DNA of 64,000 bases from Cellvibrio sp. PSBB023. GTDB lineage: Bacteria > Pseudomonadota > Gammaproteobacteria > Pseudomonadales > Cellvibrionaceae. The translations under genes and the position numbers were made by a program. The notes beneath the pieces are model-generated. The model was not told the origin of the DNA and searched no databases. It worked only from the letters and a program-made list of their open reading frames with translations. Within the stretch, counting starts at the first letter, position 1. Every line of letters begins with the position of its first letter. The DNA is taken from positions 1,798,001 to 1,862,000 of the forward strand of contig NZ_CP019799.1 in NCBI RefSeq assembly GCF_002007605.1, read 5' to 3'. Below are positions 30,957 to 62,517 of this stretch, one piece after another.

Positions 30957-32402
30957 ATGCTGCAACAACGCTCATTATTGGTATTGCTGTTTCTGGGCTG
31001 GTGTACCTCGGCAAACGCTGCTTCCACTGGGTTGGATTTAACCAACAGCCTGGCAGGCTGGTTTTGTGTCGGCTTGTTTGTGATTGCCTATGCATTTGTG
31101 ATGTTGGAAGAAAAACTGCACCTGCGCAAATCCAAACCGGTACTGGCTGCCGCCGGTATCATCTGGGTCGTTATTGGCTGGGTTTACACGCAGCACGAAC
31201 AATCCGCTCTTGCGGAGCAAGCCTTTCGCCATACCCTGCTTGAATTTGCCGAACTGATGTTATTTTTGCTAGTCGCCATGACATACATTAATGCCATGGA
31301 TGAACGCGGCTTATTCAACGCCTTGCGCGGATGGATGATTAAAAAAGGCTTTACCTATCGCCAACTGTTTTGGATTACCGGCTTGATGGCATTTTTTATA
31401 TCGCCCATTGCCGACAACCTCACCACCGCATTGCTGATGTGCGCAGTAGTATTAAAAATCGCTGAAAATGAAAAAGCCTTTATCAATATGTGCTGCGTCA
31501 ACATTATTGTCGCCGCCAACGCAGGCGGCGCTTTCAGCCCATTTGGTGACATCACCACACTCATGGTATGGCAAGCGGGAAAAGTCGACTTTTTTACCTT
31601 CTTCCATTTATTCATCCCCTCGCTGGTCAACTTTGCCCTACCCGCCGCGATTATGAGTTTTTTCATCAACAATAAAAAACCACACAAAGATGAAGAGGAT
31701 TTATTTCTGGAAACCCTCACCTACAAAGAGGGCGCCTTTCCAATCCTGTTTTTATTTTTAGCCACCATCGCCAGTGCAGTACTCGGTCACATCCTCATTC
31801 ATATGCCACCAGTGCTCGGCATGATGCTGGGCTTGGCCTACCTGAAAATTTACGGTTTCTATTTGCGCAAAAAAGGCATAGTAGATTTAAAAAATGCAGA
31901 GCAAAGTGCCTCTGACTTCATGCCGAAAAATGACGAAAACCCCATCACCAAAGTGCCCCTCCCCTTTGATGTATTTCAACCCCTGGCCCGCCTGGAATGG
32001 GACACGCTGTTATTTTTCTACGGTGTGATTATGTGTGTCGGTGGTTTAGGTTTTATGGGCTACTTAACACTGCTGTCAGAATCGCTCTACGGCAATTTCA
32101 GCCACACCGTCTCCAACGTGAGCCTCGGTTTGATCTCCGCCGTCATCGACAACATCCCCGTCATGTACGCCGTACTTACCATGGCTCCGGACTTCTCCCA
32201 AGGCCAATGGCTGCTTATTACTTTAACAACCGGTGTCGGCGGCAGCATGCTATCAATCGGTTCCGCCGCCGGTGTCGCTCTCATGGGCCAAGCCCGCGGC
32301 TACTACAGTTTTCTCGGCCATTTAAAATGGACGCCGGTAGTCGCCTTGGGTTATGTCGCCAGTATTTATTCACACCTGTGGTTAAATGCTTCCATTATGT
32401 AA
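30957..32402 (+). CDS. nhaD: Na+/H+ antiporter NhaD
   Basis: 481-residue ion-transporter-superfamily antiporter that exports Na+ or Li+ in exchange for protons. It has an N-terminal signal-like segment ending 'TSANAAS', then about 12 TM helices. Family motifs: 'FFISPIADNLTTALLMC', 'ANAGGAFSPFGDITTLMVW' and 'SAVIDNIPVMYAVLTM', with the conserved acidic and polar residues. GGGGAG precedes the ATG. It is the last ordinary chromosomal gene before the cassette array; its stop is about 20 bp from the first repeat. Confidence 0.92.
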   Translation: MLQQRSLLVLLFLGWCTSANAASTGLDLTNSLAGWFCVGLFVIAYAFVMLEEKLHLRKSKPVLAAAGIIWVVIGWVYTQHEQSALAEQAFRHTLLEFAELMLFLLVAMTYINAMDERGLFNALRGWMIKKGFTYRQLFWITGLMAFFISPIADNLTTALLMCAVVLKIAENEKAFINMCCVNIIVAANAGGAFSPFGDITTLMVWQAGKVDFFTFFHLFIPSLVNFALPAAIMSFFINNKKPHKDEEDLFLETLTYKEGAFPILFLFLATIASAVLGHILIHMPPVLGMMLGLAYLKIYGFYLRKKGIVDLKNAEQSASDFMPKNDENPITKVPLPFDVFQPLARLEWDTLLFFYGVIMCVGGLGFMGYLTLLSESLYGNFSHTVSNVSLGLISAVIDNIPVMYAVLTMAPDFSQGQWLLITLTTGVGGSMLSIGSAAGVALMGQARGYYSFLGHLKWTPVVALGYVASIYSHLWLNASIM

Positions 32403-32417
32403 AGTTGGGCAGGTTAA

Positions 32418-32502
32418 AAGTAATGACTGTGTTGAATGCTATAACGCATGGTAATTGCGAGTGCGCGTAAGCTAAATTGGCGCGGAAGGTATTGGTTTTT
32501 TG
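32418..32502. repeat. Left copy of long imperfect repeat (partial attC-like end)
   Basis: About 85 bp starting AAAAGTAATGACT aligns, with small gaps, to 34915-34998 ('TTGAATGC', 'TGCGAGTG', 'GCTAAATT', 'GGTATTG' blocks in the same order). It covers the right half of what is a complete attC-like site at the other copy. Here the matching left half is replaced by the 3' end of the DJ-1-like gene, whose last codons and TAG lie inside the repeat. It marks the left boundary of the cassette region. Confidence 0.55.
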
Positions 32503-33266
32503 GATTTTCCACTTTTCTCGAGCAAAATAATCATTTCTTTCGCCACCAATGCAGCAGAAGGGAGGAACATTGTGGAAACAATACGTCCATCAATAATGAC
32601 ATCATGTTTATCCGCGATGTTATCTTTATTGATTATCCGCGCCCCATTCTTGCGAAGCTGTTTTTCGACGAAAAATGGGAGGAGCGAGCCTTGTTTGGCC
32701 CATGACTTTTCTTTTTCGGTAGAGTCAGGAAATCCGGCGACTTGCTTTCCCTCAACCAGAAACTTTCCGCTACTCAGTTTTACATTTGCAAAACCGCCAG
32801 CACCATGCCCACTGCTACCGATCACGCCGCCTTTCTCATAAATCGCTGCCATGACATTTAACAGCTTTTTATTTGAAGCTACATCGAACAGTGTTCCGTA
32901 TCCTCCGCCAATAAAAACGGCTGCGTATTCATCAGGCTTTATCTGATCCGGCGCCAGAGAACTATTGGCCCGCTCTAAAAAACCTTCATATTTTATGGTG
33001 TAGCTACTAATGCCTACTGGCTCCATCATAAACGGCACGACGTCTCCCGAGGGGGATGCAAATTCCACATCATATCCATGAGAGACAAAAACGTGATATG
33101 GGGGCGCGTACTCCCATAGATTATTCCTGGCATCATGTTTATCAGGATCACCCATATCTTCAACATTAGAGGCAATAATCAGAATTTTCTTAAGATCATT
33201 AGATTGTGCGGGCACAGAAAAAAATGCCAGTAGGATTAGTGCTATTAATAGATTTTTCATTTTCAC
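32472..33266 (-). CDS. Exported DJ-1/PfpI-like protein lacking the nucleophilic Cys
   Basis: 264 residues with a signal peptide ('NLLIALILLAFFSVPAQSN') and a DJ-1/PfpI (Hsp31-like) fold: 'KILIIASNVEDMGDPDKHDA', 'GYDVEFASPSGDVVPF', 'YAAVFIGGGYGTLFDV'. At the nucleophile elbow the usual AxCHG is 'IGSSGHGAGG': cysteine is replaced by glycine (codon GGG), while the following His is kept. The enzyme class normally needs this Cys for glyoxalase, deglycase or hydrolase activity, so this may be a binding protein or use different chemistry. Its 3' end merges with an attC-like repeat, suggesting it arrived as a cassette or was trimmed by recombination. Confidence 0.85.
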   Translation of the reverse strand: MKMKNLLIALILLAFFSVPAQSNDLKKILIIASNVEDMGDPDKHDARNNLWEYAPPYHVFVSHGYDVEFASPSGDVVPFMMEPVGISSYTIKYEGFLERANSSLAPDQIKPDEYAAVFIGGGYGTLFDVASNKKLLNVMAAIYEKGGVIGSSGHGAGGFANVKLSSGKFLVEGKQVAGFPDSTEKEKSWAKQGSLLPFFVEKQLRKNGARIINKDNIADKHDVIIDGRIVSTMFLPSAALVAKEMIILLEKSGKSKKPIPSAPI

Positions 33267-33298
33267 TCCATTGATACAAGTTATTTTCTTTCATTTTC

Positions 33299-33349
33299 AG
33301 TCGAGCCGCATATACCAAGTGCCTCAATATGCTGCAATTCCACACGACT
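33299..33349. other. Palindrome between beta-lactamase and DJ-1-like genes
   Basis: Nested complementary arms AGTCG/CGACT and GCCGCATAT/ATATGCTGC surround a 13-base loop. It begins at the beta-lactamase stop codon. It lacks attC-type AAC/GTT ends in the right orientation and lacks a T-run. It could be a transcript 3' hairpin or a degenerate recombination site. Confidence 0.4.
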
Positions 33350-34250
33350 AACCTATGGCCCATTCCGCCGCAATCTTCCCCACCTCAGCGAGAACAGCTT
33401 CATGCCTTGCTTCTATTTTTTCCGTGTATTCACCACTATCAAAATAGGCTGCAATGATGATGGGGTTCTTACCAGGGGGAAAAGTAATAGCAACGTCATT
33501 GCACTTATTAGTCGTTCCTTCATCGCGCCCGGTTCCAGTCTTGTTCCCAGTACGCCATTCAGTGGGAAGACCAGCTCGCAACCGCCGAGCACCCGTAGTT
33601 GTATTTCGTGCCCACTCCAGAAGTCGTTCGCGCGAATCTGGCCGTAAAATGCTGCCAGTCAAAATTCGACTGACAAGCTGGGCATAAGCAAGAGGTGAAG
33701 TAGTGTCGCGAGTATCGGCAGAAAGAACCAAACCTAGATCCGGCTCATAACGATCCAGGCGAGTGACAGTATCACCCATCTCTCTGAACTTTGCGGTGAC
33801 AGCCTTAGGGCCGCCCAAGCGCTTAACTAAAAGGTTCGCCGCAACGCCATCGCTCTTTTCTTGAGCCGCTTGCGCCAAGGTGGCAATACTTAAACCTCCC
33901 TTGGCAAGATGCTCTCTAGTGACCGGCGCCCAAGGAAGAAGATCCGCCGCTGAATAAGGCAATATCTCATCCAGACTCAACCGCCCGTTATCGGCCTCGC
34001 GCAGGCAAGCGGCAACCATCGCCAGTTTGAATGACGAACACATCGCAAAGCGCTCCTCGATACGATTACCACTGACCTCACCGGTAACTGTGTCAAGGAA
34101 ACAAACTCCGAGGCGCGCCTGCCCCACTTCCAACATCTGAAGCCGCTCAGCGGCATCAAAACGGCGCTTGGCAGGCTTTGATGCAACAGGCATTGCCAGA
34201 ATTGTGCCTGCCACCACGGAGGCAATCAAAAAGTCGCGTCTATTAAACAT
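33348..34250 (-). CDS. Class A beta-lactamase with Tat signal
   Basis: 300 residues; hydrolyses beta-lactams in the periplasm. The N-terminus carries a twin-arginine signal (NRRDFLIASVVAG). Class A motifs: S72-S-F-K75 (Ambler 70-73) preceded by Cys71 (Ambler 69); S132-D-G134 where most enzymes have SDN; omega-loop Glu168 in 'RYEPDLG', with Gly at the Ambler 170 position normally Asn; K236-T-G. SDG is known from mycobacterial BlaC and Gly170 from GES enzymes; both affect spectrum and deacylation. There is no Ambler 238 Cys partner for Cys69. It lies within the cassette array on the cassette strand. Enzyme class certain, spectrum unknown. Confidence 0.93.
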   Translation of the reverse strand: MFNRRDFLIASVVAGTILAMPVASKPAKRRFDAAERLQMLEVGQARLGVCFLDTVTGEVSGNRIEERFAMCSSFKLAMVAACLREADNGRLSLDEILPYSAADLLPWAPVTREHLAKGGLSIATLAQAAQEKSDGVAANLLVKRLGGPKAVTAKFREMGDTVTRLDRYEPDLGLVLSADTRDTTSPLAYAQLVSRILTGSILRPDSRERLLEWARNTTTGARRLRAGLPTEWRTGNKTGTGRDEGTTNKCNDVAITFPPGKNPIIIAAYFDSGEYTEKIEARHEAVLAEVGKIAAEWAIG

Positions 34251-34401
34251 TCAACTGATCCTATTGTGATTAAATAAATTCCTATTTGTTGTAAAATTTG
34301 GCGACCTAATACCAAGTTCAACGGTAATTTTTCAAGAGGAACTGCTTTTAACTTTTATCATAAGCACACCCCATAATTACATTACTTTTGTTGGGGAATA
34401 C

Positions 34402-34776
34402 TTAAGCCGACTGAACATGGCTTGTTGTAACTTCTGCTATTAGCTTACCGGATACATCAATAACCGTTGTTTTAACTACACTAACAGTGCGTCCTTTTTT
34501 GACATAATTTGATTTTGCCACAAAGGTTCCTGCCGTATTATTCCCTAATAAGTTGGCATTAATATTTATTGCCAATGGAAAGCCTTTCATACCCTGCTCA
34601 GGATTAACTCCTTCAAGAACAAGTACAGATGCGGTTACATCAGCGAGCCACAAAGTAGCACCCGCATTAACAGTACCAAAAGGATTCAATATGCCGGGCT
34701 GTATCGGCATTTCAGAAATAACTTCATCTGATGATCTTGCAGTAACCGTAAACTTAATATGACCTTGAACTTCCAT
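34402..34776 (-). CDS. PaaI-type hotdog thioesterase
   Basis: 124 residues with the hotdog-fold signature of PaaI/4HBT thioesterases ('PFGTVNAGATLWLADVTAS', 'KSNYVKKGRTVSVVKTTV'). It probably hydrolyses acyl-CoA. The gene lies in the cassette strand direction, 151 bp before the beta-lactamase. The intervening AT-rich stretch has no clear attC, so it is not certain that it is a separate cassette. Substrate unknown. Confidence 0.8.
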   Translation of the reverse strand: MEVQGHIKFTVTARSSDEVISEMPIQPGILNPFGTVNAGATLWLADVTASVLVLEGVNPEQGMKGFPLAININANLLGNNTAGTFVAKSNYVKKGRTVSVVKTTVIDVSGKLIAEVTTSHVQSA

Positions 34777-34914
34777 ACTTACACCTTACCTACAACCAAT
34801 GAATTAACAATTAGCCAACTTATCCTAAGTGTTCTTAGGTTTTCAACAAACCTTATAAGAAGCTCGTCGAGCAGGGTAAATACAAGAAAAATTCACTTAC
34901 GACCTGCATACGAA

Positions 34915-35020
34915 AAATAATGACGATCTTGAATGCCATGGTGAGCGATAACTGCGAGTGGCAGGCTAACTAAATTTGCGCCGTAGGTATTGATTTTCTA
35001 CCACAGTCGCTTGTTAGAGT
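34915..35020. repeat. attC-like site with flanking repeat (right copy)
   Basis: From 34966 to 35020 the sequence has integron attC form in minus-strand reading: CTCTAAC directly after the stop of the gene ending at 35014, AAGCGAC, a weak stem (GTAG/CTAC, GCG/CGC), then GTTAGCC. The stretch 34915-34998 is the partner of the imperfect repeat at 32418-32502. Short for an attC (about 55 bp), so moderately confident. Confidence 0.5.
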
Positions 35021-35460
35021 TCTTCTTTCTCTGCACACTTTAGTTTTTCGTTACCCAGCTCTAGGTCTGCACTAAAGTTTTTGGATTCAACCGATTGAAA
35101 GCAAACCAACTCATGATTTTGACCAAACTCCGAAATTTGGTATTGGGCATCTGCGTCAGTCAGCAGCTTATTTAAACGGACAACTACACCTTTATGATCA
35201 TTTTTTCTTAGCGCATGCCTTCCATAAATTACTGTGAATTTATTTTCAGGTAGGTTTCCACTTACTATTTTTTTAACCTTTGCTTCGTACAAATAAAATG
35301 TGGACCACGTATGACAATCTTCTTCATTGTCTCCGTAGCACATAACACCAGCTGTCTTTCCAGTGTCTTTGATAAACTTTAGGTCAAGTTTTGCAATTAG
35401 CTCTTCAGAATGGCAGAAGCTTGAAAACAGAACTGCAACGATAGCGATTATTTTTTTCAT
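35014..35460 (-). CDS. Cassette gene: exported protein of unknown function
   Basis: 148 residues with a signal peptide (KKIIAIVAVLFSSFCHSEE; SSFC could be a weak lipobox). The mature part is mixed alpha/beta with three further cysteine-containing patches ('VMCYGDNEEDCHTW', 'LVCFQSV', 'LKCAEK'), suggesting disulfides in the periplasm. Not recognised. Its stop codon overlaps an attC-like site, and only 33 bp of half-attC separate it from the preceding cassette gene. Confidence 0.65.
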   Translation of the reverse strand: MKKIIAIVAVLFSSFCHSEELIAKLDLKFIKDTGKTAGVMCYGDNEEDCHTWSTFYLYEAKVKKIVSGNLPENKFTVIYGRHALRKNDHKGVVVRLNKLLTDADAQYQISEFGQNHELVCFQSVESKNFSADLELGNEKLKCAEKEEL

Positions 35461-35493
35461 TGATAACTCTAAGGCCGCGATAAACGGTGGTTT
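35461..35493. repeat. Half attC remnant between two cassette genes
   Basis: The 33 bp, with the preceding codons, match the right half of the full attC at 38897-39010 (minus-strand reading TTAAAAACCACCG, then TTATCGC, then TTA). The complementary left half is missing, so two cassettes seem to have been fused by a deletion. The stop codon TAA of the upstream gene lies inside the remnant. Confidence 0.6.
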
Positions 35494-35928
35494 TTAAGGC
35501 TCTTCGTACTCTACTTCAATTTCAAATGGCGCCCTTGCTTTACAGTCTTCAGGGAAGATTCGTTCTATTTTTTTAATGCTTTTAATTTCTACGTTTCTTT
35601 CCCATGGCTCACCAGCCAATCCCCACCCTGCGCGCCCCTCTCCTGCTATACGCCCCACAAACTCTACATAAATAGGTTCTCGTATTTTGGCTTTTCGAAG
35701 AGCGTACTCATTTGAAATGTTCGTATTACCCACGTCAGTGAAACTCATTCCTTTGCTACCCGAGCACGAGAAAAAGCCGATAAGTTCTTCGTCATCAATA
35801 ACATAACCAGAAAATGCACTCCACTGATCCGAATAGCTCTTTTCATGGAAAACATACATGCCTGCTCCAGTAAAAACAGTAAGAACAGCGCATATATAAA
35901 AATAAGTAGAAATTTGGTTAAAGTTCAT
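35494..35928 (-). CDS. Cassette gene: membrane-anchored protein of unknown function
   Basis: 144 residues starting at the ATG at 35928, which immediately follows an attC site; the longer ORF would run through the attC palindrome. One N-terminal membrane segment ('FYICAVLTVFTGAGMYVFH') and a polar domain ('LIGFFSCSGSKGMSFTDVGN', 'EPIYVEFVGRIAGEG', 'EDCKARAPFEIEVEY'). Similar short anchored proteins occur often in integron cassettes of marine and soil bacteria. No function recognised. The 3' end runs into a half attC, so the last codons may not be original. Confidence 0.65.
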   Translation of the reverse strand: MNFNQISTYFYICAVLTVFTGAGMYVFHEKSYSDQWSAFSGYVIDDEELIGFFSCSGSKGMSFTDVGNTNISNEYALRKAKIREPIYVEFVGRIAGEGRAGWGLAGEPWERNVEIKSIKKIERIFPEDCKARAPFEIEVEYEEP

Positions 35929-35934
35929 GACTGC

Positions 35935-36018
35935 CTTAACGCCCGTAGCACGCGCGGCCTTGTAGTGGAGGCGCAGCCGCAACGAAAAGGCCGTCGCTGT
36001 ACCTGCGCTTGTTAAGAG
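35935..36018 (-). repeat. attC site of the GNAT cassette
   Basis: In minus-strand reading TCTTAAC AAGCGCAGG ... CTACGGGC GTTAAGG, with complementary internal arms (GGCC/GGCC, GCGCAG/CGCGTG region) and a loop near 'TTCGTTGCGGC'. The GNAT stop codon TAA is part of the first core box, as typical for cassettes. About 84 bp. Confidence 0.8.
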
Positions 36019-36476
36019 GCGACCTGCTTGCACATGACATCGACCGTCACTCCTTTATATTCGCATCGCTCCATATGACGCCAGCCCAGCTTCTCATAAA
36101 GCTTCGAGGCGAACTCGGTGTAGAGATACCATGTACTGATATTTGAGCGAACCGCCTCATCTTCGCATCGAATAATCAATTCGGTTGCTATCCCTTGATG
36201 CCGGAAGCCCTCCTTTACGTAGACGGCCGCCAACCAAGGGGATAGATCTGGTTTGGAGTCCATATCGTTCTTTACAAGCGCAGCGGAACCAACAAGCTGA
36301 TTTCCTGATATTGCAATAAAGATTGAAGGAATACCCTCTCGCCCCGCGGCGTTAGCGATTGCTTCTGCTCGCCCGTCCAAAGTAAGCGATGGATTCAAAT
36401 GCTTCCATTCTGCATGGTGGAGCTCAGCCAACTCAGCAATGAACTCTTTTTTATCAGCCAGAGGAACGATTTCCAC
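36012..36476 (-). CDS. Cassette gene: GNAT-family N-acetyltransferase
   Basis: 154 residues with the GNAT acetyl-CoA-binding motif ('AAVYVKEGFRHQGIATELI', Q-x-x-G-x-A) and the C-terminal 'ASKLYEKLGWRHMER'. 'ELAELHHAEWKHLNP' at the N-terminus is common in one acetyltransferase subgroup found in integrons. GTG at 36476 is chosen because AGAGG lies 8 bases upstream and an insertion sequence begins 18 bp before it; the ORF's longer TTG start lies in IS DNA. Substrate unknown; aminoglycoside or amino-acid acetylation is possible. Its attC follows. Confidence 0.85.
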   Translation of the reverse strand: MEIVPLADKKEFIAELAELHHAEWKHLNPSLTLDGRAEAIANAAGREGIPSIFIAISGNQLVGSAALVKNDMDSKPDLSPWLAAVYVKEGFRHQGIATELIIRCEDEAVRSNISTWYLYTEFASKLYEKLGWRHMERCEYKGVTVDVMCKQVAS

Positions 36477-36519
36477 AGTCTTTGCCTCTGGTCCTACCCA
36501 CAAAAAGTAGACACTCTAA

Positions 36520-37389
36520 CTATGCAGCTAGCGCTGCCCTTCGTTCAAACTCAGCGGGTGCCACATAACCAATACTGGAATGTCGGCGCAAGCGATTGTA
36601 GAACACTTCAATGTATTCAAAGATACTGGATTTAGCCTCATCAATCGAGTGAAATTGCTGGGTATAAATCAACTCTACTTTCAAGCGACTAAAGAAGGAT
36701 TCCATCGGCGCATTATCCCAACAGTTGCCTTTCCTACTCATACTCGGAGTGGCTCCATGACGCACCATAAAATCAATATATTTTTGCGCCCGATATTGAA
36801 CACCTCGATCAGAGTGGATGATTAGTCCAGGTTGAGTTTCCCGACGTTCAAACGCCATGCGTAATGCATTGGTGACCAGCGCCTCTGTCATACTGGTATC
36901 CAGCGACCAACCGACAATACTGCGCGAATATAGATCCATTACCACCGCCAAATAGAGCCACTGCTTTTCAACCCAGATATACGTAATATCCGTTGTCCAC
37001 TTCTCATTAGGTTTGTTCGCGCCAAAGCGACGCCAGAGTAGATTCTCTGACACGTTGTGCATCGTCAAGGCATGGCTTCCATAATTAAACGCCTTACCGT
37101 TGTGGGCCTTTAAACCCTGTAGTTTCAGCACATTGGCAACAAAGTTCACTGAACAAGGATAACCTATGGCCTGCAACTCTTTGGCGATGCGCGGCGCACC
37201 ATAGCGTGCTTTGTAAGTCGCATAGGTGTCCATAATCTGACGCTCGCGGCACTCCCGCTTCTGCTGCCGCTGGCTCTTTTCCCCCCGAACAGCCCAGCGA
37301 TAAAAGCCACTGCGAGAAACGGACAATACACGGCACATTAGCGTTACCGAAAATGCCTCCAGATGCTCACGAATTAATGCGTACTTCAC
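36520..37389 (-). CDS. IS3-family transposase OrfB (integrase core)
   Basis: 289 residues with the DDE catalytic triad in an rve domain: Asp in 'WTTDITYIWVEKQWLY', Asp in 'IIHSDRGVQYRAQKY', Glu in 'APMESFFSRLKVELI'. The N-terminal HTH_21 segment begins 'YALIREHLEAFSVTLMCRVL'. The GTG start overlaps the OrfA stop (GTGA). It can also be produced as an OrfAB fusion by -1 frameshifting at the slippery site in orfA, since the -1 frame is open into this gene. The reading frame is uninterrupted. Confidence 0.93.
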   Translation of the reverse strand: MKYALIREHLEAFSVTLMCRVLSVSRSGFYRWAVRGEKSQRQQKRECRERQIMDTYATYKARYGAPRIAKELQAIGYPCSVNFVANVLKLQGLKAHNGKAFNYGSHALTMHNVSENLLWRRFGANKPNEKWTTDITYIWVEKQWLYLAVVMDLYSRSIVGWSLDTSMTEALVTNALRMAFERRETQPGLIIHSDRGVQYRAQKYIDFMVRHGATPSMSRKGNCWDNAPMESFFSRLKVELIYTQQFHSIDEAKSSIFEYIEVFYNRLRRHSSIGYVAPAEFERRAALAA

Positions 37390-37694
37390 TCGTGCTGGTT
37401 CGCAAAGTACGCAGCTGCCTTTTTTAAGAAGGCCAACTCTTTTTCAAGCTCTGCATTTCTTCGCTTTAATTGACGCAGCTCATCACTTTCATTTTTTGAA
37501 TAATCGACCCCCGCCACCGAATTGAATTGCTTTTCAGAAAGACGGGTAAACTGACGGCGCCAGTTGTAAATTTGCTGTGCACTAATACCGAGATCCCGCG
37601 CTACTGAAGCAGTGGTATTGCCCTCCTGCTCTGCGCGTTTAACGGCTTCGCGGCGAAACTCTTCGGTATAAGCTTGTGTTTTTTTACGTGCCAT
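37386..37694 (-). CDS. IS3-family OrfA (HTH_8 DNA-binding subunit)
   Basis: 102 residues. Helix-turn-helix 'NTTASVARDLGISAQQIYNW' for terminal-repeat recognition, then a leucine-zipper-like helix ('ESDELRQLKRRNAELEKELAFL'-type heptads) for multimerisation. ATG 37694 has GGAGG about 9 bases upstream. The slippery heptamer A-AAA-AAG lies in phase at 37419-37425, 30 bp before the orfB start codon, which is the classical -1 frameshift signal of this IS family. Confidence 0.9.
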   Translation of the reverse strand: MARKKTQAYTEEFRREAVKRAEQEGNTTASVARDLGISAQQIYNWRRQFTRLSEKQFNSVAGVDYSKNESDELRQLKRRNAELEKELAFLKKAAAYFANQHE

Positions 37695-37760
37695 AGTGAG
37701 CACCTCCATATAGGGTTTTCTAACTATACAGGGTGTCTACAATTGGTGGGTAACTCGGCC

Positions 37761-37893
37761 TCTTAACGCCTAGTTCAGCGGCAGTTTTTAAGTTGTGGTT
37801 TTATGGAATACTTTTGCGCAGCAAAACCATAAAGCCGCGACTTAAAAACTTTCCAGCACACGAAGTGTGCGATGCTGGAACGACTTGTTATGT
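37761..37893 (-). repeat. attC site (133 bp)
   Basis: Minus-strand reading: ACATAAC, AAGTCGTTCCAGC, a long imperfect palindrome (AAGTCGCGGCTTTATGG against its complement, loop near TGCTGCGC), GCTGAACTAGGC, GTTAAGA. Core boxes and L boxes pair as in integron attC sites. It begins 2 bp from the stop of the gene ending at 37895. Confidence 0.85.
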
Positions 37894-37894
37894 G

Positions 37895-38344
37895 CTATAC
37901 ATATTTTGGTCTTTTTCCAGCTTTAATTTGACGCGCAAGCCAAATTATTATTGGCGTGCCGAGAATGCTTGGTAAGAACCATATAAAAATATTACCGGAG
38001 CCAAAATTTACAACTAAAACTGCTGTAGCCATGGCTATAAAAGAGCCTGCTTGACCTGTTAAGTGAAACCGAAGCCAATTACGCCATTTTAATTTGGCCG
38101 CAAGAAAGCCAACCAGGGCAAAAGCATAGGAAAAAAGTGCAATAGGTAAAAACCACCATAGGCGCTCCCAATTTAGCAAGGATAATGCTACAGCCGATAG
38201 AGAAAGCATTAGAAATAGCCAGTGGTAAATATTACCCAAAAGCGTATGTATGCCTTTACGCTTTTTAGATGCAAATGCACCGAAGCCGATTACCAAGCCT
38301 GCGGCTCCGCAAAATATATGCAAAATTAATATTATAATTTCCAT
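37895..38344 (-). CDS. Cassette gene: multipass membrane protein (DUF2306-like)
   Basis: 149 residues with four or five TM helices. The pattern 'LHIFCGAAGLVIGFGAF' then 'KKRKGIHTLLGNIYHW' (conserved His and Gly spaced as in DUF2306 proteins) suggests that family; a second His-Gly pair is in 'FHLTGQAGSFIAM'. Function of the family is unknown. Followed directly by attC, preceded by attC, so a textbook single-gene cassette. Confidence 0.7.
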   Translation of the reverse strand: MEIIILILHIFCGAAGLVIGFGAFASKKRKGIHTLLGNIYHWLFLMLSLSAVALSLLNWERLWWFLPIALFSYAFALVGFLAAKLKWRNWLRFHLTGQAGSFIAMATAVLVVNFGSGNIFIWFLPSILGTPIIIWLARQIKAGKRPKYV

Positions 38345-38372
38345 ATTTAAGATAATTTTTCAGCCTAAGAAA

Positions 38373-38502
38373 ACATAACGTTAAGCACAACGGCAGTTTG
38401 TAAATTGCGCGTTGTGAAATACTTTTGCGTAGCAAAACAACATAAGCGCGACTTACAAACTGTTCAGCACACGAAGTGTGCGTGCTGCAACGCTTGTTAT
38501 GA
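38373..38502 (-). repeat. attC site (130 bp)
   Basis: Very similar in form to the site at 37761-37893: minus-strand TCATAAC, AAGCGTTGCAGCACGC, palindrome with AAGTCGCGCTTATG / TTGTAAATTGCGCG arms and the shared 'CACACTTCGTGTGC' loop-proximal hairpin, then CGTTATGT. It starts 3 bp after the stop at 38506. Confidence 0.85.
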
Positions 38503-38505
38503 GTT

Positions 38506-38883
38506 TTACTTTCCACCAAACAGCCTTGATATAAAACCTTTTTTTGGTTTTTTGTTTTCTCTAATACTCTCAATCTCTTGCCATACAGGATTAGCTGCTT
38601 TTTCTAAGGGGTCATGTATTTCAATAAGTTTATTTACCAGATTAAATGTTGTTTCATAATTTGATATTTCGTGCTCACAAACTTCTATTGATTTATCAAA
38701 AATGTAGGGAAATATTTTGCACCACACGGAGTAATATTTTCGACAGTATGTCTCTGTTCCGAATATTTGACCATGCGGGCCACATATAAGTGCGTGAGTT
38801 ATTGTTTTACGCCGGCCATTTATTTCTTTTGCTTTTTCGATTTGAGATTCGTTTAAAGTAACAAGAGTTAAATTATATTTCAT
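38506..38883 (-). CDS. Cassette gene: soluble protein of unknown function
   Basis: 125 residues from ATG 38883 (the longer ORF would extend into the neighbouring attC). There is no signal or membrane segment. Features: 'ITHALICGPHGQIFGTETYC', aromatic-rich 'KYYSVWCKIFPYIFDKS', and a basic C-terminus ('KPKKGFISRLFGGK'). AT-rich with codon use unlike the flanking chromosomal genes. Not recognised. Confidence 0.65.
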   Translation of the reverse strand: MKYNLTLVTLNESQIEKAKEINGRRKTITHALICGPHGQIFGTETYCRKYYSVWCKIFPYIFDKSIEVCEHEISNYETTFNLVNKLIEIHDPLEKAANPVWQEIESIRENKKPKKGFISRLFGGK

Positions 38884-38896
38884 TTTTGTGGTTTTC

Positions 38897-39010
38897 TCAT
38901 AACGTTGCGATAACCGGTGGTTTTTAAGTAGCACTTTTGCCATAAAATGGAGCGAAGCGGAATGGCAAAAATGCTACTTAAAAACCATCCGGTTGATTGC
39001 CTTGTTAGCT
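38897..39010 (-). repeat. attC site (114 bp)
   Basis: Minus-strand reading: AGCTAAC, AAGGCAATC, then an almost perfect long stem (ACCGGATGGTTTTTAAGTAGC against its complement) capped by a 'CGCTTCGCT' loop, ending CGCAAC GTTATGA. The best-formed palindrome in the array. Starts 3 bp after the stop at 39013. Confidence 0.88.
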
Positions 39011-39012
39011 GC

Positions 39013-39387
39013 TTACTGCCAATTTTTAATTGCTCTTTCTATATGCTTTTTCTCAACCAATTCAAAATTACTTAGGCACCATTTTAAAAAAGACAGCACG
39101 GTTGATTTTTGCTGGCTGTTACAGAGGTGCTTGAAATTAAGGTGACTATTTGCAGTGTCTTTAGCTCTACCATATTCGGAAAGACAACTCAAAGTATATG
39201 AGCAGACAAGATTACCGTTTTCTTCTCCGTGCTTCATGCACCATTTCAAATAAGCTGGAACAATAACCATAAGGTCTAGTTCACCCTCAATTTCCATTAA
39301 ATTCGGGTTGCGCTCAATAAATTCTTCCGTTATGACTCCGTCAGAGAATTTACCGAATGCATTTTCTATTTCTTGCGATATATTCAT
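39013..39387 (-). CDS. Cassette gene: soluble protein of unknown function
   Basis: 124 residues, no signal, predicted mostly helical ('SQEIENAFGKFSDGVITEEF', 'MVIVPAYLKWCMKHGEENGN', 'LSFLKWCLSNFELVEKKHIE'). The two W-C-x helices look like a repeated unit. Not recognised. Most upstream cassette still carrying a gene; its own attC follows, and a further attC lies before it. Confidence 0.65.
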   Translation of the reverse strand: MNISQEIENAFGKFSDGVITEEFIERNPNLMEIEGELDLMVIVPAYLKWCMKHGEENGNLVCSYTLSCLSEYGRAKDTANSHLNFKHLCNSQQKSTVLSFLKWCLSNFELVEKKHIERAIKNWQ

Positions 39388-39399
39388 TTTTTTGGGTTC

Positions 39400-39543
39400 A
39401 GCTAACAGTTTATTAGACGGCTACAGCCGTATATCACTTTTATTTGACTTCACCAAATTGAATTAGTCAATTGTTTCTATTGGCATTTATTGGAATGCTA
39501 AAGCCTCAATAAATCAGATATACGGCGCGAGCCGTTTATAGCG
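39400..39543 (-). repeat. attC-like site at the right end of the array
   Basis: A long imperfect palindrome: GGCTACAGCCGTATATC on one arm and GATATACGGCGCGAGCC on the other, with terminal AGCTAAC (plus strand) and GTTTATAGC. Loop of about 100 bases is AT-rich. It would be the attC of a cassette whose gene has been lost; to its right begins the xylan cluster and no integrase gene is found. Confidence 0.6.
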
Positions 39544-39621
39544 AAAGACCAATTAAAGACTATCACACAAGCGAGCGCCAACAAAAATTTCACCTTATTA
39601 CCTACCCCCTTTAAAAAGGGC

Positions 39622-39677: not shown

Positions 39678-41519
39678 TTAGAACTGACTGATAAATTTCC
39701 AGGCTTCTTGTGGAATCCAACTTTCTGGTTGACCAGCATCGTGTTGCGATGGCCAGTGTCCGCCATCAAATGCACACCAACGTACCGGGTAGCCCGCTGT
39801 ACAGCCCTGATAAGAGGTGCATATGTGCGTGCCGCTTCCGCGTGATGGTTCAAGCGGGTTTTGTGCGGTACATCTGTTGTTTCTGACAAAGCGATCACGC
39901 AGAGAGCGACCTTGGGAAATGCTCAGCACATTGTCATCCAAACCATGGGTCGCGAAATATGCGATTGGTAAGGTTCCGCCGTCACAACCGCTTAGCTGTG
40001 CGCCTGCATAGAGTGCAACACCACGGAAAACATTGGCGCGTGCACAGGCTACTGCATTTGACATGCCTGCACCGTAGCTAAAGCCGGTAGCAAAGATTCT
40101 GCTTTTATCGATACAGAAGTTGGACTGGATTTGATTCAAAATAGCATCGGTAAATGCAAGATCACGGCCACCGCTATTTGCCCAGCCTTTATCTATGCCT
40201 TCCGGTGCAATAAAGATTGTGCTGTTTTGCGCGAGGTTCCACAGGCCGTAATAAGGTGTTTCGGTTGCAGAACCATTACCGCCATTGGCAACTTGTGTAG
40301 CATCGCCGTTTAACCAGTGGTAACCAATAATCAAACGATAGGGATTTTGATTATTGTAGTTGTCCGGTACGCGCAGAATATATGAACGATTCAATCCATT
40401 CACATTGAGATTATGGCGGCCATTTTGTTGGCTGCGAGCTTTACCACATCCGTCACTGGGTATAGCGCCATTTGGATTGGTGGGTGTTGTCGGCGGATCT
40501 ATAACACCTGAGTATGGACCAATATGTACCCAATCCAGGTCTACATAATCTGTCGCGCCGACAGTGACGCGAATTTTTTGATAACCGGGTTTCAAGCGAA
40601 CCTTGCCCGCTGACCAGGTTTTAAATTCACCCCAGTTATTAACGTTCGGCACCTGGAAGGATTCAATCAGCGTGGTGTTGCACTGTGAGATTTTTAATGT
40701 GCGCCCCGTACCTACAGCACCGGAACGAATGATTACATCGTAATCGCCTTCCGTTTCGACGTAGACAGTGTATTCAAGCCATTCACCAGCAGTCATCCAG
40801 CCAACGGCGTGACCATTAGTAATGGTTTTGATGTCTACGCCGGTATCTGTGCGATAAGCACCGCCTTCGTTGGCCGCTGTGCTATCAAAGTAACCGGCAG
40901 GATCAAAATCTTCCGCCTGGATTGTTGCCGGGATACGTGGCGCCAGCATTTGAAATGCATTCTCTACCTGACTTGGACAGGCATTACTCGCCACACTCGA
41001 TGAGGTACGCGAGGACGATGAACTGGTACGCGATGATGAAGCAACAACAATAGATGAACTTGAACTGGAAGAGCTGACGACTGGCGTACTGCTTACCGAA
41101 GAGCTTGCTGGCGCAGTACCGCACAAGGTGCCATTAATTTGTGGACGCTCAGCGCTATTGCCGGTTTTTGTTCCCTGGAATCCAAATGAAATAGATTGAC
41201 CGGCAGCAATGTTGCCATTCCAGGATACGTTGGTTGCCGTGTATGGATTGTTACCCGATAGATTGGCATTCCAGCTATTGGTAATACGATTGTTGGCATA
41301 TTGCCAATTTACGCTCCAATTGTTGACGGCTGCGCCTGTATCATTTTTTACCGTAATACTTGCTACGAAGCCATTGGACCATTCATTGTCGACTTGGTAA
41401 GTACAAGCAGCCGATGCTGTTTGTGTCGCGAGGGCGATAGTAGCAGCCACCCCAAAATAGAATAACGATCGTTTTACATTACGCCAATTATCTGGGGAGG
41501 ATTGGTTTGATTTATACAT
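39678..41519 (-). CDS. Secreted CBM2-CBM6-CE1 esterase (feruloyl/acetyl-xylan type)
   Basis: 613 residues: signal peptide (1-37), CBM2 (about 39-133, cellulose/xylan binding), polyserine linker (135-178), CBM6 (about 185-335, 'TIQAEDFDPAGYFDST' to 'DLDWVHIGPY'), Pro/Thr linker, and a CE1 alpha/beta-hydrolase domain (about 355-613). The nucleophile is Ser481 in 'ATGFSYGAGMSNAV'; a His near 'CAFDGGHWPSQHD' completes the triad. It should remove feruloyl or acetyl esters from arabinoxylan. GGAT lies about 7 bases before the ATG. Last gene of the xylan cluster; a 230-bp AT-rich region upstream may hold its own promoter. Confidence 0.9.
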   Translation of the reverse strand: MYKSNQSSPDNWRNVKRSLFYFGVAATIALATQTASAACTYQVDNEWSNGFVASITVKNDTGAAVNNWSVNWQYANNRITNSWNANLSGNNPYTATNVSWNGNIAAGQSISFGFQGTKTGNSAERPQINGTLCGTAPASSSVSSTPVVSSSSSSSSIVVASSSRTSSSSSRTSSSVASNACPSQVENAFQMLAPRIPATIQAEDFDPAGYFDSTAANEGGAYRTDTGVDIKTITNGHAVGWMTAGEWLEYTVYVETEGDYDVIIRSGAVGTGRTLKISQCNTTLIESFQVPNVNNWGEFKTWSAGKVRLKPGYQKIRVTVGATDYVDLDWVHIGPYSGVIDPPTTPTNPNGAIPSDGCGKARSQQNGRHNLNVNGLNRSYILRVPDNYNNQNPYRLIIGYHWLNGDATQVANGGNGSATETPYYGLWNLAQNSTIFIAPEGIDKGWANSGGRDLAFTDAILNQIQSNFCIDKSRIFATGFSYGAGMSNAVACARANVFRGVALYAGAQLSGCDGGTLPIAYFATHGLDDNVLSISQGRSLRDRFVRNNRCTAQNPLEPSRGSGTHICTSYQGCTAGYPVRWCAFDGGHWPSQHDAGQPESWIPQEAWKFISQF

Positions 41520-41751: not shown

Positions 41752-43680
41752 TTATTTCTTCAGTCGCAACAAACCCAATTTATAAGGAATAGTGTTGTAA
41801 GTTGAGCCTGTGCCTGATTCGCCTTGATAGAGGAATTCAAGGTTGCATGGATCAACCGTCAGACGCTCATCGTAACCGGAACGAACGAGTTCGCCATGGC
41901 TGATACCATTAGCCCACTTACCAGTTGGCCACTCCACATTGTTATTACCTGCAAATGGGTTTGCATCAGTATCTGCCAGTGGCGTCCATGGGCCATCCAG
42001 ACTGGATGATGTCCATGAGCGGAACATACGTGGGCCACTTGGCCAGGCTTCAACCAACAACAAATATTTATTTTGTCCATCCAATTTATAAACGTTAGGC
42101 GCTTCAAATAAATACTGGTTGCCATTGCCACGATGATCTTCCATCACGATGGAATAACCGGAGAAATTGGGGAAATTGCCGATAGTGGTTTTGGATACAT
42201 ACAACACACCGTCGTCGCGTGAGAAATATAAATAGCAGTGGGTATCATTACAAATCACCCAGAAATCCAAGGCGCCATTAGGTTCACCTTGCAGCAAGCG
42301 CTGCTTGGCTGACCAATTGGGGTTTCTAATGTCGTCCGTTGTGGCATAAGTACCCGGCCACTGGGTAATCAAATACCATTTGTTATGTGGACGGAAGAAA
42401 AATACCTGTGGTGCAACAGCGTTGCCAACACGAGTACCATTCATGGAAGTATGCGGTGCTTGTTGTGCATTGTTCCAATCAGTGAAGCTGGTGTACATGG
42501 ATTTGTAGGAGGTGTCATAGTAGGTCGCATACACATGGTAAGTACCGTTATATTTCACAACCGACGGATCTTTAATAGATACCCAACCCTGGTTTTTTGG
42601 ACTGATTAATGGACCAGTCGATGTCCATCTCAGCGGCGCTTTTAATTCACAGGTCTGGCCCGTACTGCTGCTGGAACTGCTTGAGCTACTGGAAGAACTG
42701 GAGCCAGGAACAACATCACCCGTGATGAAAAAATCATCCGCATAATAACTAATGGTGGTCTCTGTCGCTTCAATAATGAAATGCTGGAATGCTGTGGAAC
42801 CTAACTGAGTGTAATAACCTTGCAGCAAACGCCACTCGGTAGATGATGCAGTGATGGTCGCCACACGAGTGTATTCGTTATAGGTTGTGGTATCCGAATC
42901 ATCCAGGCGTTTTGCTGTCAGGCTGATAACACTATCCGGTGTGCCGGGCGCTAGTTTTACCCATACACCCACATCATACTGGTTGCCGTTAGTGAGAGAA
43001 CCCACATTAAATGTCAAACCATTCCACGCCGCTGTGCGCCCGGTAATTAATGCACTGGCAGAACCACTGCGCTTATCGGCTGTTGAACGAGCAACAGTTC
43101 CTGCGGTGGTTCCCCAATTAGTCAGGCCAGATTCCACGCCACCATTTTGTGCAAAGTTATTGGCTGGTAATGAAGCATTTGCCGATGAAGCAACGCTGCT
43201 ACGCACGCTGGATGCAACCATTGAACTGGAGCTTGAATTAGCGCTTGAACTGGAGCGTGGTACAGAACTGGTAGCAGCGCTACACAAAGCACCATTCACA
43301 CTGGGGCGCTCAGCGCTTCCACCACGTTTATCAACCTGAAAACCAAATGATACAGACTGACCTGCAGCAATATTGCCATTCCAACTCATATTGGTGGCCG
43401 TATAGGGACTGCTGCCAGAAAAATTGGCATTCCAACCGCTAGTCATACGATTGGTAGCGTATTGCCAATTTACACTCCAATTATTAACTGCTGCATTGGT
43501 ATCATTTTTTACTGTGATATTAGCAACATAACCACTCGACCATTCACTTTCAATCGAGTAAGTACATGCTGCCGACACCGCCGAGGATGCAACCATAAGG
43601 CCCATCCCCAAACCAATTACACCGCAGGTATTGCGCAAGATTTGCGATAGTAAATTGGCGGAGTATTTTTGCTTATTCAT
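41752..43680 (-). CDS. Secreted CBM2-CBM(4/9/22)-GH62 alpha-L-arabinofuranosidase
   Basis: 642 residues: signal peptide, CBM2 (about 39-133), polyserine linker, a CBM4/9/22-type beta-sandwich (about 175-325, 'NNFAQNGGVESGLTNWG' to 'TTISYYADDFF'), a second polyserine linker and a GH62 domain (about 350-640). GH62 marks: 'WVSIKDPSVVKYNGTYHVYA', 'GALDFWVICNDTHCYLYFS', 'YLFEAPNVYKLDG', 'ISHGELVRSGYDERL'. It releases arabinose side chains from arabinoxylan. The N-terminal half is nearly the same as in the GH10 xylanase two genes upstream. The corresponding pair in Cellvibrio japonicus (XYLB/XYLC) is known to share N-termini. Confidence 0.93.
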   Translation of the reverse strand: MNKQKYSANLLSQILRNTCGVIGLGMGLMVASSAVSAACTYSIESEWSSGYVANITVKNDTNAAVNNWSVNWQYATNRMTSGWNANFSGSSPYTATNMSWNGNIAAGQSVSFGFQVDKRGGSAERPSVNGALCSAATSSVPRSSSSANSSSSSMVASSVRSSVASSANASLPANNFAQNGGVESGLTNWGTTAGTVARSTADKRSGSASALITGRTAAWNGLTFNVGSLTNGNQYDVGVWVKLAPGTPDSVISLTAKRLDDSDTTTYNEYTRVATITASSTEWRLLQGYYTQLGSTAFQHFIIEATETTISYYADDFFITGDVVPGSSSSSSSSSSSSSTGQTCELKAPLRWTSTGPLISPKNQGWVSIKDPSVVKYNGTYHVYATYYDTSYKSMYTSFTDWNNAQQAPHTSMNGTRVGNAVAPQVFFFRPHNKWYLITQWPGTYATTDDIRNPNWSAKQRLLQGEPNGALDFWVICNDTHCYLYFSRDDGVLYVSKTTIGNFPNFSGYSIVMEDHRGNGNQYLFEAPNVYKLDGQNKYLLLVEAWPSGPRMFRSWTSSSLDGPWTPLADTDANPFAGNNNVEWPTGKWANGISHGELVRSGYDERLTVDPCNLEFLYQGESGTGSTYNTIPYKLGLLRLKK

Positions 43681-43729
43681 AATTCATCTCCGTTAATGGA
43701 TTAAGTTATTTCACTTTATAGATTTTTAT

Positions 43730-45757: not shown

Positions 45758-45817
45758 GGGAATTCTCCCTGATTATTATGAATGGGTTGGGTGTTTGACG
45801 AAGGGATTAAGAGGAGC

Positions 45818-45843
45818 GGCTCATAAAATCCTTTCCATGAGCC
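45818..45843. other. Intercistronic hairpin between GH10 and GH43 genes
   Basis: GGCTCAT and ATGAGCC with a 12-base loop in the 109-bp gap, no T-run. Possibly an mRNA-stability or partial termination element separating expression levels of the two genes. Confidence 0.4.
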
Positions 45844-45866
45844 ACCAAAAACCAAATTACTTTCTA

Positions 45867-47729: not shown

Positions 47730-47770
47730 TTTTTGAAATCTCCATTGTTATTAGAAAAGCACAGGAACGA

Positions 47771-47800
47771 ACTTAAAAACGCCCGGATCGAAGACCGGGC
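47771..47800 (-). terminator. Terminator or attenuator after GH30 gene
   Basis: Minus-strand GCCCGG, 8-base loop, CCGGGC then GTTTTTAAG, in the 95-bp gap between GH30 and GH10. A plausible intrinsic terminator that would lower read-through into the GH10-GH43-GH62 genes. Confidence 0.7.
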
Positions 47801-47824
47801 AAAGGGACCTAACGACGAAAAACA

Positions 47825-62320: not shown

Positions 62321-62517
62321 TCAGACACCTCGGGCGCGCAAGGTAAAGGCGAGCGTCACTCAAGTCAATGAATTCCTGCTTTCTCCACACGCCTTATGAC
62401 CCCAAAGCCGCCAAGATAGAAACCATTCTTTTTTCTATTTGCATTGACTTATTAAAACTCACTAGAATCTCATGCGTAAAAATATCGTAAACAACACTAC
62501 AGGTCAGGACACTTAAC

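What the first reader, a model, noticed from the sequence alone, without database searches (positions are those of the whole stretch)
32418..39543. Integrase-less integron cassette array (CALIN)
At least four good attC palindromes (35935, 37761, 38373, 38897) and two or three weaker ones each lie immediately after a short minus-strand gene. No integrase gene is in the window. The array sits between nhaD and the xylan locus and carries several unknown genes plus resistance-type genes.
Basis: partly seen in the sequence, partly recalled or inferred. Interest (0 to 1): 0.75.

Follow-up and report, generated by a model that had tools for sequence, protein, structure and literature searches.

The report
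Integron array with orphan attI dock
This stretch of a Cellvibrio chromosome is a real gene-cassette array that lacks its own integrase but keeps its own cassette-insertion site, one of several such docks scattered around a genome in which only one integron integrase gene was found, far away.

Summary
Three attC sites in the window are found at E 5.7e-32 to 2.5e-24 by a covariance model built only from attC sites elsewhere in the genome. A fourth (35934) folds as an attC of another type. No integrase was found in the window; the only intI over cut-off lies about 1.53 Mb away, beside waaA, with 12 attC sites.

"CALIN" is incomplete. The array's proximal end (39403-39438) carries the attI core of that intI, which occurs exactly twice in the genome. 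Three more loci with attC and no intI begin at a second attI type (copies 91.7-94.5% identical). That type is dispersed in the genus: 33 matches in 11 of 21 genomes. 24 of 28 docks examined have attC on the cassette side, and none of 30 share their cassette-side flank. Microbulbifer yueqingensis has one intI and four docks of its own attI type.

Best reading: one integrase serving several attI docks in trans. The trans activity is inferred. The main rival is integrons that lost intI; relics in two relatives show that this happens. The beta-lactamase and PfpI genes are not shown to be cassettes.

The parts
39403..39438 (+). orphan attI core (type A): TAACAGTTTATTAGACGGCTACAGCCGTATATCACT; cassettes join at its TAAC end
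   Evidence: 0 mismatches to the attI core beside intI at C1:308585 in the defined pattern; only two copies in the 4.7-Mb genome at up to 3 mismatches; aligned
39508..39538 (-). inverted partner box of the attI region (GATATACGGC...), the same layout as attI regions that lie before intI in relatives
   Evidence: inverted repeat I2 with 39414-39444, 77% complementary; compared by eye with intI-adjacent attI regions printed; 39400-39545 folds with z -3.63
39548..39603 (+). short interspersed motif (CCAATTAAAGACTAT...ATTACC) next to the dock; possible target site
   Evidence: also present without a dock in G006
39013..39387 (-). cassette 1 gene, 124 aa, no Pfam or NCBIfam match
38897..39012 (+). 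attC of cassette 1; 96.6% identical over 119 bp to the attC of the first cassette of the home array
   Evidence: R1 104.6 bits, E 4e-25
38506..38883 (-). cassette 2 gene, 125 aa, no Pfam or NCBIfam match
38373..38504 (+). attC of cassette 2
   Evidence: R1 101.6 bits, E 2.5e-24
37895..38344 (-). cassette 3 gene, 149 aa, weak DUF2306-like membrane protein
   Evidence: PF10067 E 1.1e-4, below the curated cut-off
37761..37895 (+). attC of cassette 3
   Evidence: R1 130.5 bits, E 5.7e-32
36489..37750 (-). IS3-family insertion between cassette 3 and the GNAT cassette, immediately beside an attC (boundaries approximate)
   Evidence: NF033516 E 2.2e-99; copies beside attC also in L009 and L085
36012..36503 (-). 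cassette 4 gene: GNAT acetyltransferase, 163 aa, 5' end next to the IS
   Evidence: PF13508 E 8.1e-11; below cut-off for the named resistance acetyltransferases listed
35934..36018 (+). attC of the GNAT cassette, short type unlike the Cellvibrio attC
   Evidence: DNA fold z -2.50; not found by R1
35494..35928 (-). cassette 5 gene, 144 aa, no Pfam or NCBIfam match
35466..35498 (+). truncated half attC overlapping the 3' end of the cassette 5 gene
   Evidence: 96.7% to L009:15121-15150 over 30 bp; repeat family D2; no folding signal
35014..35460 (-). cassette 6 gene, 148 aa, no Pfam or NCBIfam match
34854..35017 (.). 3' end of an IS110/IS1111-type element in what is left of the cassette 6 attC
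   Evidence: 87-90% to the two IS copies in L009; one has an open 319-aa frame at L009:10122-11081 (family named from recall)
34402..34776 (-). hotdog-fold thioesterase gene, probable old cassette; 89.7% DNA identity in the G005 array at the same interval
   Evidence: TIGR00369 43.9 bits
34307..34338 (+). decayed attC remnant after the thioesterase gene
   Evidence: D1/D2 repeat member, 66-69%; no folding signal
33348..34250 (-). class A beta-lactamase-like gene in the interval; not shown to be a cassette
   Evidence: NF033103 253.8 bits, cut-off 200; 84.6% DNA block in G008 without R1 attC
32472..33266 (-). DJ-1/PfpI-family gene; not shown to be a cassette, but a 73% homologue lies about 0.9 kb from a dock in G005
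   Evidence: PF01965; L124:9920-10642, dock at L124:11561; no R1 attC on L124

Best explanation
The region is a secondary cassette array of a multi-dock chromosomal integron. Its core (34.3-39.54 kb) is a row of gene cassettes with attC sites that starts at a complete attI region (39403-39540) but has no integrase gene. I propose that the only intact integron integrase found in the genome, about 1.53 Mb away beside waaA, works in trans: it binds the orphan attI, which carries the same core as its own, and joins folded attC sites to the position at its TAAC end (G/TT on the cassette strand). New cassettes would thus enter next to the xylan gene as well as at home. The genome holds at least three more orphan docks of a second attI type, each beside attC. 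Related docks are dispersed in the genus, and many of them probably multiplied as intI-less units. Shown: attC sites, attI copies, exact junctions, dispersal, one intI over cut-off. Inferred: present activity in trans, and the way in which docks are copied.
For: attC: model built from 12 home sites, three out-of-sample hits at E<=2.5e-24; in an alignment of 30 chosen attC, 14 of 25 predicted pairs keep pairing through changes on both sides. attI: core present exactly twice in the genome, 0 mismatches, 0 in the reversed-pattern control; the same core with 1 mismatch in G006 beside an intI 84% identical. Integrase: TIGR02249, 425 bits against cut-off 265, the only match over the cut-off in G000. 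More docks: three type-B copies in G000 at C1:233704, 2675046 and 2865255, beside 4, 4 and 1 R1 attC, 91.7% identical over 276 bp or 93.9-94.5% over 165 bp. Dispersal: 61 BLAST rows in 13 of 21 genomes; 33 rows in 11 genomes begin at query position 1-4, i.e. at the cassette boundary; the other 28 are tail-only matches. Of the 33, 2 lie beside an intact intI, 24 were fetched (23 without an intI match at E<=1e-3, 1 with a relic) and 7 were not inspected. In 30 docks the conserved part starts TAACA, and their 250-bp cassette-side flanks show no similarity to each other at E<=1e-3. 24 of 28 docks have an R1 attC within 1.5 kb on the cassette side; the misses are L070:10440, L124, L140 and L141. 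A cassette gene of the 233-kb array is 93.6% identical over 109 aa to one in the G005 nhaD interval. Second genus: Microbulbifer yueqingensis has one intI whose attI core differs at 1-2 of 34 positions from four docks on four contigs; no intI on those four stretches; R1 attC at two of the four.
Against: No recombination was observed. The type-B docks of G000 have no type-B integrase in the genome, so the resident IntI may not use them. G005 has seven docks but no intI at E<=1e-60, and G014, G001, G010 and G015 carry type-B docks with a resident intI of a more distant clade (45-47% identity; G015 also a truncated one of the nearer clade), so many docks outlive their integrase. An intI relic (aa 172-291, 71%) follows one dock in G001 (L127), and a 40-aa relic (90%) is left at the waaA home of G005: plain loss of intI happens. 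Outside the core the window dock and the home attI region hardly align. Four of 28 docks have no R1 attC. The tail that I read as a sign of orphan-dock copying is in 14 of 22 aligned docks only; six orphan copies lack it or show it in part. In Alcanivorax DP30 the attI beside the only intI differs from the three docks. No cassette gene is shared between the window array and the home array.
Confidence: 0.6

Rival explanations
1. Vestigial integron: a complete integron (attI, intI, cassettes) once stood here and intI was deleted cleanly; the array is frozen and the attI is a fossil.
For: The window keeps the whole attI region including the inverted box that precedes intI in relatives. IntI relics exist beside a dock in G001 and at the home locus of G005. 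[quoted passage not shown] The hotdog gene is shared with G005 at the same interval, so part of the array is old.
Against: No intI fragment in the window, L070 or L044. Three type-B copies at separate loci in G000 and five in G005, all without an intI match, would need repeated clean losses. 14 orphan copies share a tail that the intI-bearing G007 copy lacks. The core at 39403 has not decayed from the home core, while two type-A docks of G005, which lost intI, have 2 and 4 mismatches (counted by eye).
Confidence: 0.3
2. Duplication or rearrangement: a piece of an integron (attI plus first cassettes) was copied to the nhaD-xylan interval by homologous, IS-mediated or attI x attI-like recombination.
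For: The attC next to the dock is 96.6% identical to the first attC of the home array, and both arrays carry IS3 copies beside attC. PMC10127599 describes attI x attI-like reactions by an integron integrase (passage). Complex class 1 integrons with a first and a second attI site are known (PMC7056807, passage).
Against: No window cassette gene has a tblastn match at E<=1e-6 in the home array. The attI regions align only over the core. It does not explain type-B docks that have no home copy in the genome.
Confidence: 0.07
3. Plain CALIN seeded by off-target (attG-type) insertion of cassettes by the distant IntI.
For: A remote intI and several scattered attC sites exist; single R1 attC sites without a recognised attI lie near C1:2317 kb, 2794 kb and 3984 kb.
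Against: The window array begins at an exact copy of the attI core, not at an arbitrary chromosomal site.
Confidence: 0.03

Closest known systems
CALIN (cluster of attC sites lacking an integron integrase)
   Same: Several attC sites and no intI nearby; IntegronFinder 2 reports CALINs from two attC sites (PMC9024848, passage); PMC12444791 says CALINs can be mobilised in trans (passage)
   Different: The array keeps its own attI at the proximal end. IntegronFinder does not detect attI outside class 1, where attI sites are poorly described (PMC9024848, passage), so such docks go unseen
Sedentary chromosomal integron (intI + attI + array)
   Same: attI, attC type and gene orientation as in the home integron beside waaA
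   Different: intI is absent here; one intI would have to serve several attI-headed loci
Complex class 1 integrons with two attI sites, such as In104 of SGI1 (PMC7056807, passages)
   Same: More than one attI-headed array
   Different: There both lie in one compact mobile element; here docks are spread over the chromosome, at different loci and in many copies
attI-like secondary sites (PMC10127599, one passage)
   Same: IntI reactions at sites that resemble attI; the paper says such sites are frequent across genomes
   Different: Here the sites are repeated copies of full attI regions of up to about 280 bp that head cassette arrays
Delta-attI-type gene cassettes of class 1 and 2 integrons (PMC12901181; outline, abstract and passages)
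   Same: attI sequence away from intI, functional with IntI1 in their assays
   Different: There attI fragments replace the attC downstream of an ORF inside arrays
CALINs of Xanthomonas away from ilvD (PMC12444791; passages)
   Same: Conserved secondary array positions apart from the intI home locus
   Different: The passages seen do not mention attI copies at those CALINs
attG sites (named in PMC12901181 and PMC12444791 passages; the original paper not read)
   Same: Chromosomal entry points for cassettes outside attI
   Different: attG sites are described there as neither attC nor attI

Membership tests
CALIN | two or more attC sites in a cluster | tested here: met
   3 R1 hits plus one folded attC of another type
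CALIN | no integron integrase nearby | tested here: met
   no tblastn hit in the window; the only match over the cut-off in the genome is at C1:308962-309897
Plain CALIN (attC sites alone, in the sense used here) | no attI belonging to the array | tested here: not met
   attI core at 39403-39438. The usual operational definition does not ask about attI, so the name CALIN still applies
Complete (sedentary chromosomal) integron | intI beside attI | tested here: not met
Complete (sedentary chromosomal) integron | attI directly joined to the first cassette at the recombination point | tested here: met
   alignment A2; the conserved part starts TAACA in 30 of 30 docks and cassette-side flanks are unrelated
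Delta-attI-type cassette | attI fragment downstream of an ORF in place of attC | tested here: not met
   the attI lies upstream of the first cassette gene, at the array head
attG-type insertion | entry site unrelated to attI and attC | tested here: not met
   entry site is an attI copy
Trans-acting multi-dock integron (proposed) | resident IntI recombines attC with the orphan attI | not testable with these tools
   needs an in vivo recombination assay

The most novel reading that the evidence does not exclude
In Cellvibrio, Microbulbifer and perhaps other gammaproteobacteria the integron is not one platform but a network: attI spreads as a dispersed intI-less dock, and a single integrase loads cassettes at several docks in trans. 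The genome would then have many expression contexts for captured genes, and some CALINs would be active outposts and not decayed or accidental arrays. Docks would be mobile elements in their own right that can outlive one integrase and be taken over by another. (Probability lowered from 0.4 to 0.35 on checking, because the shared tail is in 14 of 22 docks only and a preference for gene 3' ends is weak, 19 of 27.)
Probability: 0.35. Interest if true: 0.85.

Novelty: new variant of a known kind. Interest (0 to 1): 0.68.

Why it matters
CALINs are about as common as complete integrons in one large survey (2961 and 2760; PMC9024848, passage), and their origin is put down to off-target insertion, loss of intI or rearrangement (PMC8618304, passage). 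If arrays without integrase often carry their own attI, a fourth route (dispersed docks) becomes testable with existing genomes. It would also mean that one integrase can place a captured gene in several chromosomal contexts. In print I saw two-attI complex class 1 integrons and attI-like secondary sites, but no dispersed attI copies heading intI-less arrays; the searches were in an open-licence library, of which I opened six papers, passages only.

Tried and rejected
Rfam at gathering scores found no attC in the window, only a cobalamin riboswitch. My first hand-made attC scan separated only the best window site from shuffled sequence and was replaced by the covariance model. I first took 39544-39600 as conserved flank shared with G005; the same motif lies beside docks at other loci and also without a dock in G006, so I do not use it as plain flank. 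A note of mine says that all orphan docks lie behind the 3' end of a gene. I considered that docks might be ordinary MITE- or REP-like repeats: the tail does contain short repeats that occur elsewhere alone (28 of 61 rows), but the boundary at the cassette junction and attC on one side argue for attI. The beta-lactamase gene as a cassette could not be shown. In one search several intI queries were wrong ORFs; one search repeated the test with ORFs checked against the G000 IntI. The genome-wide attC scan scored 150 of 2381 candidates, so further sites may exist. Target-site duplications of the docks were looked for by eye and not resolved. One search gave 0 papers for Cellvibrio + integron + attC; (35 papers, 15 listed) showed none on this subject by title. 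The similarity of 32403-32510 to an IS1111-type end was seen by eye only and is not claimed. Pattern hits: 34 of 60 were displayed and 49 of 60 searched with R1; some are chance hits.
Full report
Setting. The window is bases 1798001-1862000 of a single 4,705,304-base contig, G000. The genus is Cellvibrio by inference: same-genus genomes G001, G006 and G010 have contigs of the same lengths as records titled Cellvibrio sp. UBA7671, OA-2007 and UBA8526 (contig lengths against titles). G000 itself is unnamed.

The observation. The minus-strand genes between nhaD (30957-32402, +) and an esterase-like gene (39678-41519, -) are separated by palindromes that repeat one another. I did not use these to build a test. 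The 12 attC-like repeats beside the distant intI (L009 9315-18080) were made into covariance model R1, and the window was searched with it. R1 finds 37761-37895, 38373-38504 and 38897-39012 at 102-130 bits and nothing else except their reverse strands. In an alignment of 30 attC sites that I chose from eleven loci, 14 of 25 predicted pairs have changes on both sides that keep the pair. The GNAT-cassette site at 35934 is of another type, is missed by R1, and rests on its fold (z -2.50). The sites at 35466 and 34307 are a half site and a relic without folding signal.

The integrase. TIGR02249 has eight matches in G000, one over its cut-off: 425 bits at C1:308962-309897. The frame is open and contains what I recall as the catalytic Arg, His-x-x-Arg-His and Tyr boxes of tyrosine recombinases. 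It lies next to waaA (L010:25-1266). waaA lies within the fetched flank of intI also in G001, G006, G010 and G019, out of 15 intI-bearing genomes of 21, so this is a recurrent home. The distance to the window dock is about 1.53 Mb.

The attI copy. Before intI, where attI is expected, stands TAACAGTTTATTAGACGGCTGAGGCCGTATATCACT. At the proximal end of the window array stands TAACAGTTTATTAGACGGCTACAGCCGTATATCACT (39403-39438), starting where the first cassette ends. A whole-genome scan with up to 3 mismatches finds exactly these two places, in the same orientation, and none for the reversed control. Among 21 genus genomes the pattern is found in two others: G006, beside an intI, and G005, at the head of a four-attC array. 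G005 has no intI match at E<=1e-60. The intI-adjacent attI regions printed (G000, G006, G007, G020, G011, G013, G012, G018) share TAACAGTTTATT or TAACAGTTTAAT, a TATA-containing box further on, and inverted TATA-containing boxes before the intI start, by eye. The intI of ten other loci belongs to other types or had no such motif at up to one mismatch. The window keeps an inverted box at 39508-39538 and then goes straight to the xylan side.

More docks. R1 finds other attC sites in G000: 230-233 kb (4), 2675-2680 kb (4), single ones near 2317, 2794, 2865 and 3984 kb, and a weak one near 3055 kb (150 of 2381 candidates scored). Three of these loci begin at a second attI type, B, at 233704, 2675046 and 2865255. 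The three copies are 91.7-94.5% identical over 165-276 bp from the cassette boundary, while the intI-adjacent type-B attI of G007 is 75-78% identical to them. Searching 21 genus genomes with the 233-kb copy gives 61 rows in 13 genomes: 33 rows in 11 genomes start at query position 1-4, and 28 rows are short tail matches. Of the 33, two lie beside an intact intI (G007, G020); 24 were fetched, 23 of them without an intI match at E<=1e-3 and one with a relic; 7 were not inspected. In 30 docks (4 type A, 26 type B) the conserved part starts TAACA, and no two of their 250-bp cassette-side flanks are similar at E<=1e-3: the shared sequence ends at the cassette junction, and each dock has its own first cassette. 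R1 attC sites lie within 1.5 kb on the cassette side in 24 of 28 docks.

How docks spread. In the alignment of 22 type-B docks, 14 orphan copies share a tail after position about 187 (compared). The intI-bearing copy of G007 and the relic-bearing copy of G001 lack it; six other orphan copies lack it or show it in part. This suggests, but does not prove, that many orphan docks descend from one that already lacked intI. 19 of 27 non-home docks lie behind the 3' end of the longest nearby frame and 8 before its 5' end, too weak for a rule.

Interval history. G006, G007, G008 and G014 have nhaD but no R1 attC after it in the fetched stretch. G001 also has none, but its contig ends about 6 kb past nhaD. 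G005 has an array in the same interval with the hotdog gene (89.7% DNA), a type-A dock at L070:10440 and a type-B dock at L070:16351; a third attI-like site at L070:13856 was seen by eye. G010 has a type-B dock at C18:14416 on a contig that also holds nhaD-like pieces and an esterase-like gene. The interval is thus a recurrent array site, occupied by different docks in different genomes. A cassette gene of the 233-kb array of G000 is 93.6% identical over 109 aa to one in the G005 nhaD interval, which indicates movement between docks or capture from one pool.

Loss of intI is real too. G005 keeps a 40-aa intI relic (90%) beside waaA, and the dock of G001 at L127 is followed by an intI relic (aa 172-291, 71%). 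Some docks therefore became orphans by losing intI.

Beyond Cellvibrio. The pattern TAACAGTTTATTM-N13-RTATAWY in one genome per species gives 60 stretches; I displayed 34, six of which I grouped as unrelated AT-rich chance hits. Microbulbifer yueqingensis has four on four contigs, with cores that differ from one another at 0-2 of 34 positions and with different neighbours. Its genome has one intI at E<=1e-60, whose attI core differs from the docks at 1-2 of 34 positions. No intI was found on the four dock stretches; R1 attC were found on two of them, L156 and L175. Alcanivorax sp. DP30 has three docks and one intI, but there the probable attI beside intI is of another type.

Mechanism. IntI recognises a double-stranded attI and a folded single-stranded attC (stated in PMC11023631, passage). 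With an intact-looking integrase in the genome and an undecayed attI core at the window array, I infer that cassettes can enter here in trans. Direct evidence is missing. The alternative, a fossil integron, is the main rival. The core at 39403 has no mismatch to the home core, while the two type-A docks in G005, which has lost intI, show 2 and 4 changes; this fits use in G000, but three docks are a small sample.

Gene content. The six cassette genes nearest the dock are four without family match, a weak DUF2306-like protein and a GNAT acetyltransferase below the cut-offs of named resistance enzymes. The class A beta-lactamase-like gene (254 bits, cut-off 200) lies beyond the last decayed attC. 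Its block occurs in G008 at 84.6% DNA identity without any R1 attC. It should not be listed as cassette-borne.

Literature. All papers were seen as passages, PMC12901181 also as outline and abstract. PMC8618304 lists off-target insertion, intI loss and rearrangement as CALIN origins. PMC9024848 gives the two-attC rule and says attI sites outside class 1 are poorly described and not detected. PMC12444791 reports secondary CALIN loci in Xanthomonas and says that CALINs can be mobilised in trans. PMC12901181 shows functional attI fragments inside class 1 and 2 arrays. PMC7056807 describes a first and second attI site in a complex class 1 integron, and PMC10127599 describes attI x attI-like reactions and calls attI-like sites frequent. 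So more than one attI in a genome is not new in itself; I saw no report of dispersed attI copies heading intI-less chromosomal arrays (most listed papers not opened).

Noticed in passing
window 39548-39603; G006 L072:6149: A short interspersed motif (CCAATTAAAGACYAT...GCGCCA...AATTACAGC.TATTACC) lies beside several docks (5 of 16 instances in six genomes within 500 bp on the far side) but also occurs without a dock.
   Followed up: partly
window 36489-37750; L009:11880-13145; L085:7326-8590: Three copies of an IS3-family element each sit immediately beside an attC site with similar outer flanks, as if the IS prefers that position.
   Followed up: partly
window 34854-35017; L009:8799-8962 and 10962-11125; L086: 3' ends of an IS110/IS1111-type element lie at attC sites in several arrays; attC-targeting IS1111 elements are known from recall.
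   Followed up: partly
window 62159-62347: Cobalamin riboswitch on the minus strand, 56.6 bits.
   Followed up: no
L010:3208-4590: An NhaD-like antiporter gene stands about 3 kb beyond the home intI, so both the home array and the window array have an nhaD-like gene nearby; probably coincidence.
   Followed up: no
G005 L070:13856: A third, diverged attI-like site in the middle of the G005 array, which makes that interval look like tandem dock blocks (by eye).
   Followed up: no
G000:C1:896376: A diverged type-B dock (71% over 163 bp) with no R1 attC beside it, perhaps an empty or decayed dock.
   Followed up: partly
L166 (JAUSMW010000237.1): A contig filed under a Saccharibacteria MAG carries two attC of the Cellvibrio type at 92-98 bits and a third at 45 bits; possibly a misbinned gammaproteobacterial contig.
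   Followed up: no
L194 (SEBV01000012.1): A gammaproteobacterial MAG contig with a dense row of at least 11 R1 attC next to an attI and the start of an intI.
   Followed up: no
window 41752-49504: Cluster of secreted glycoside-hydrolase-like genes with serine-rich linkers (by eye), conserved in part in G005 and G006.
   Followed up: no
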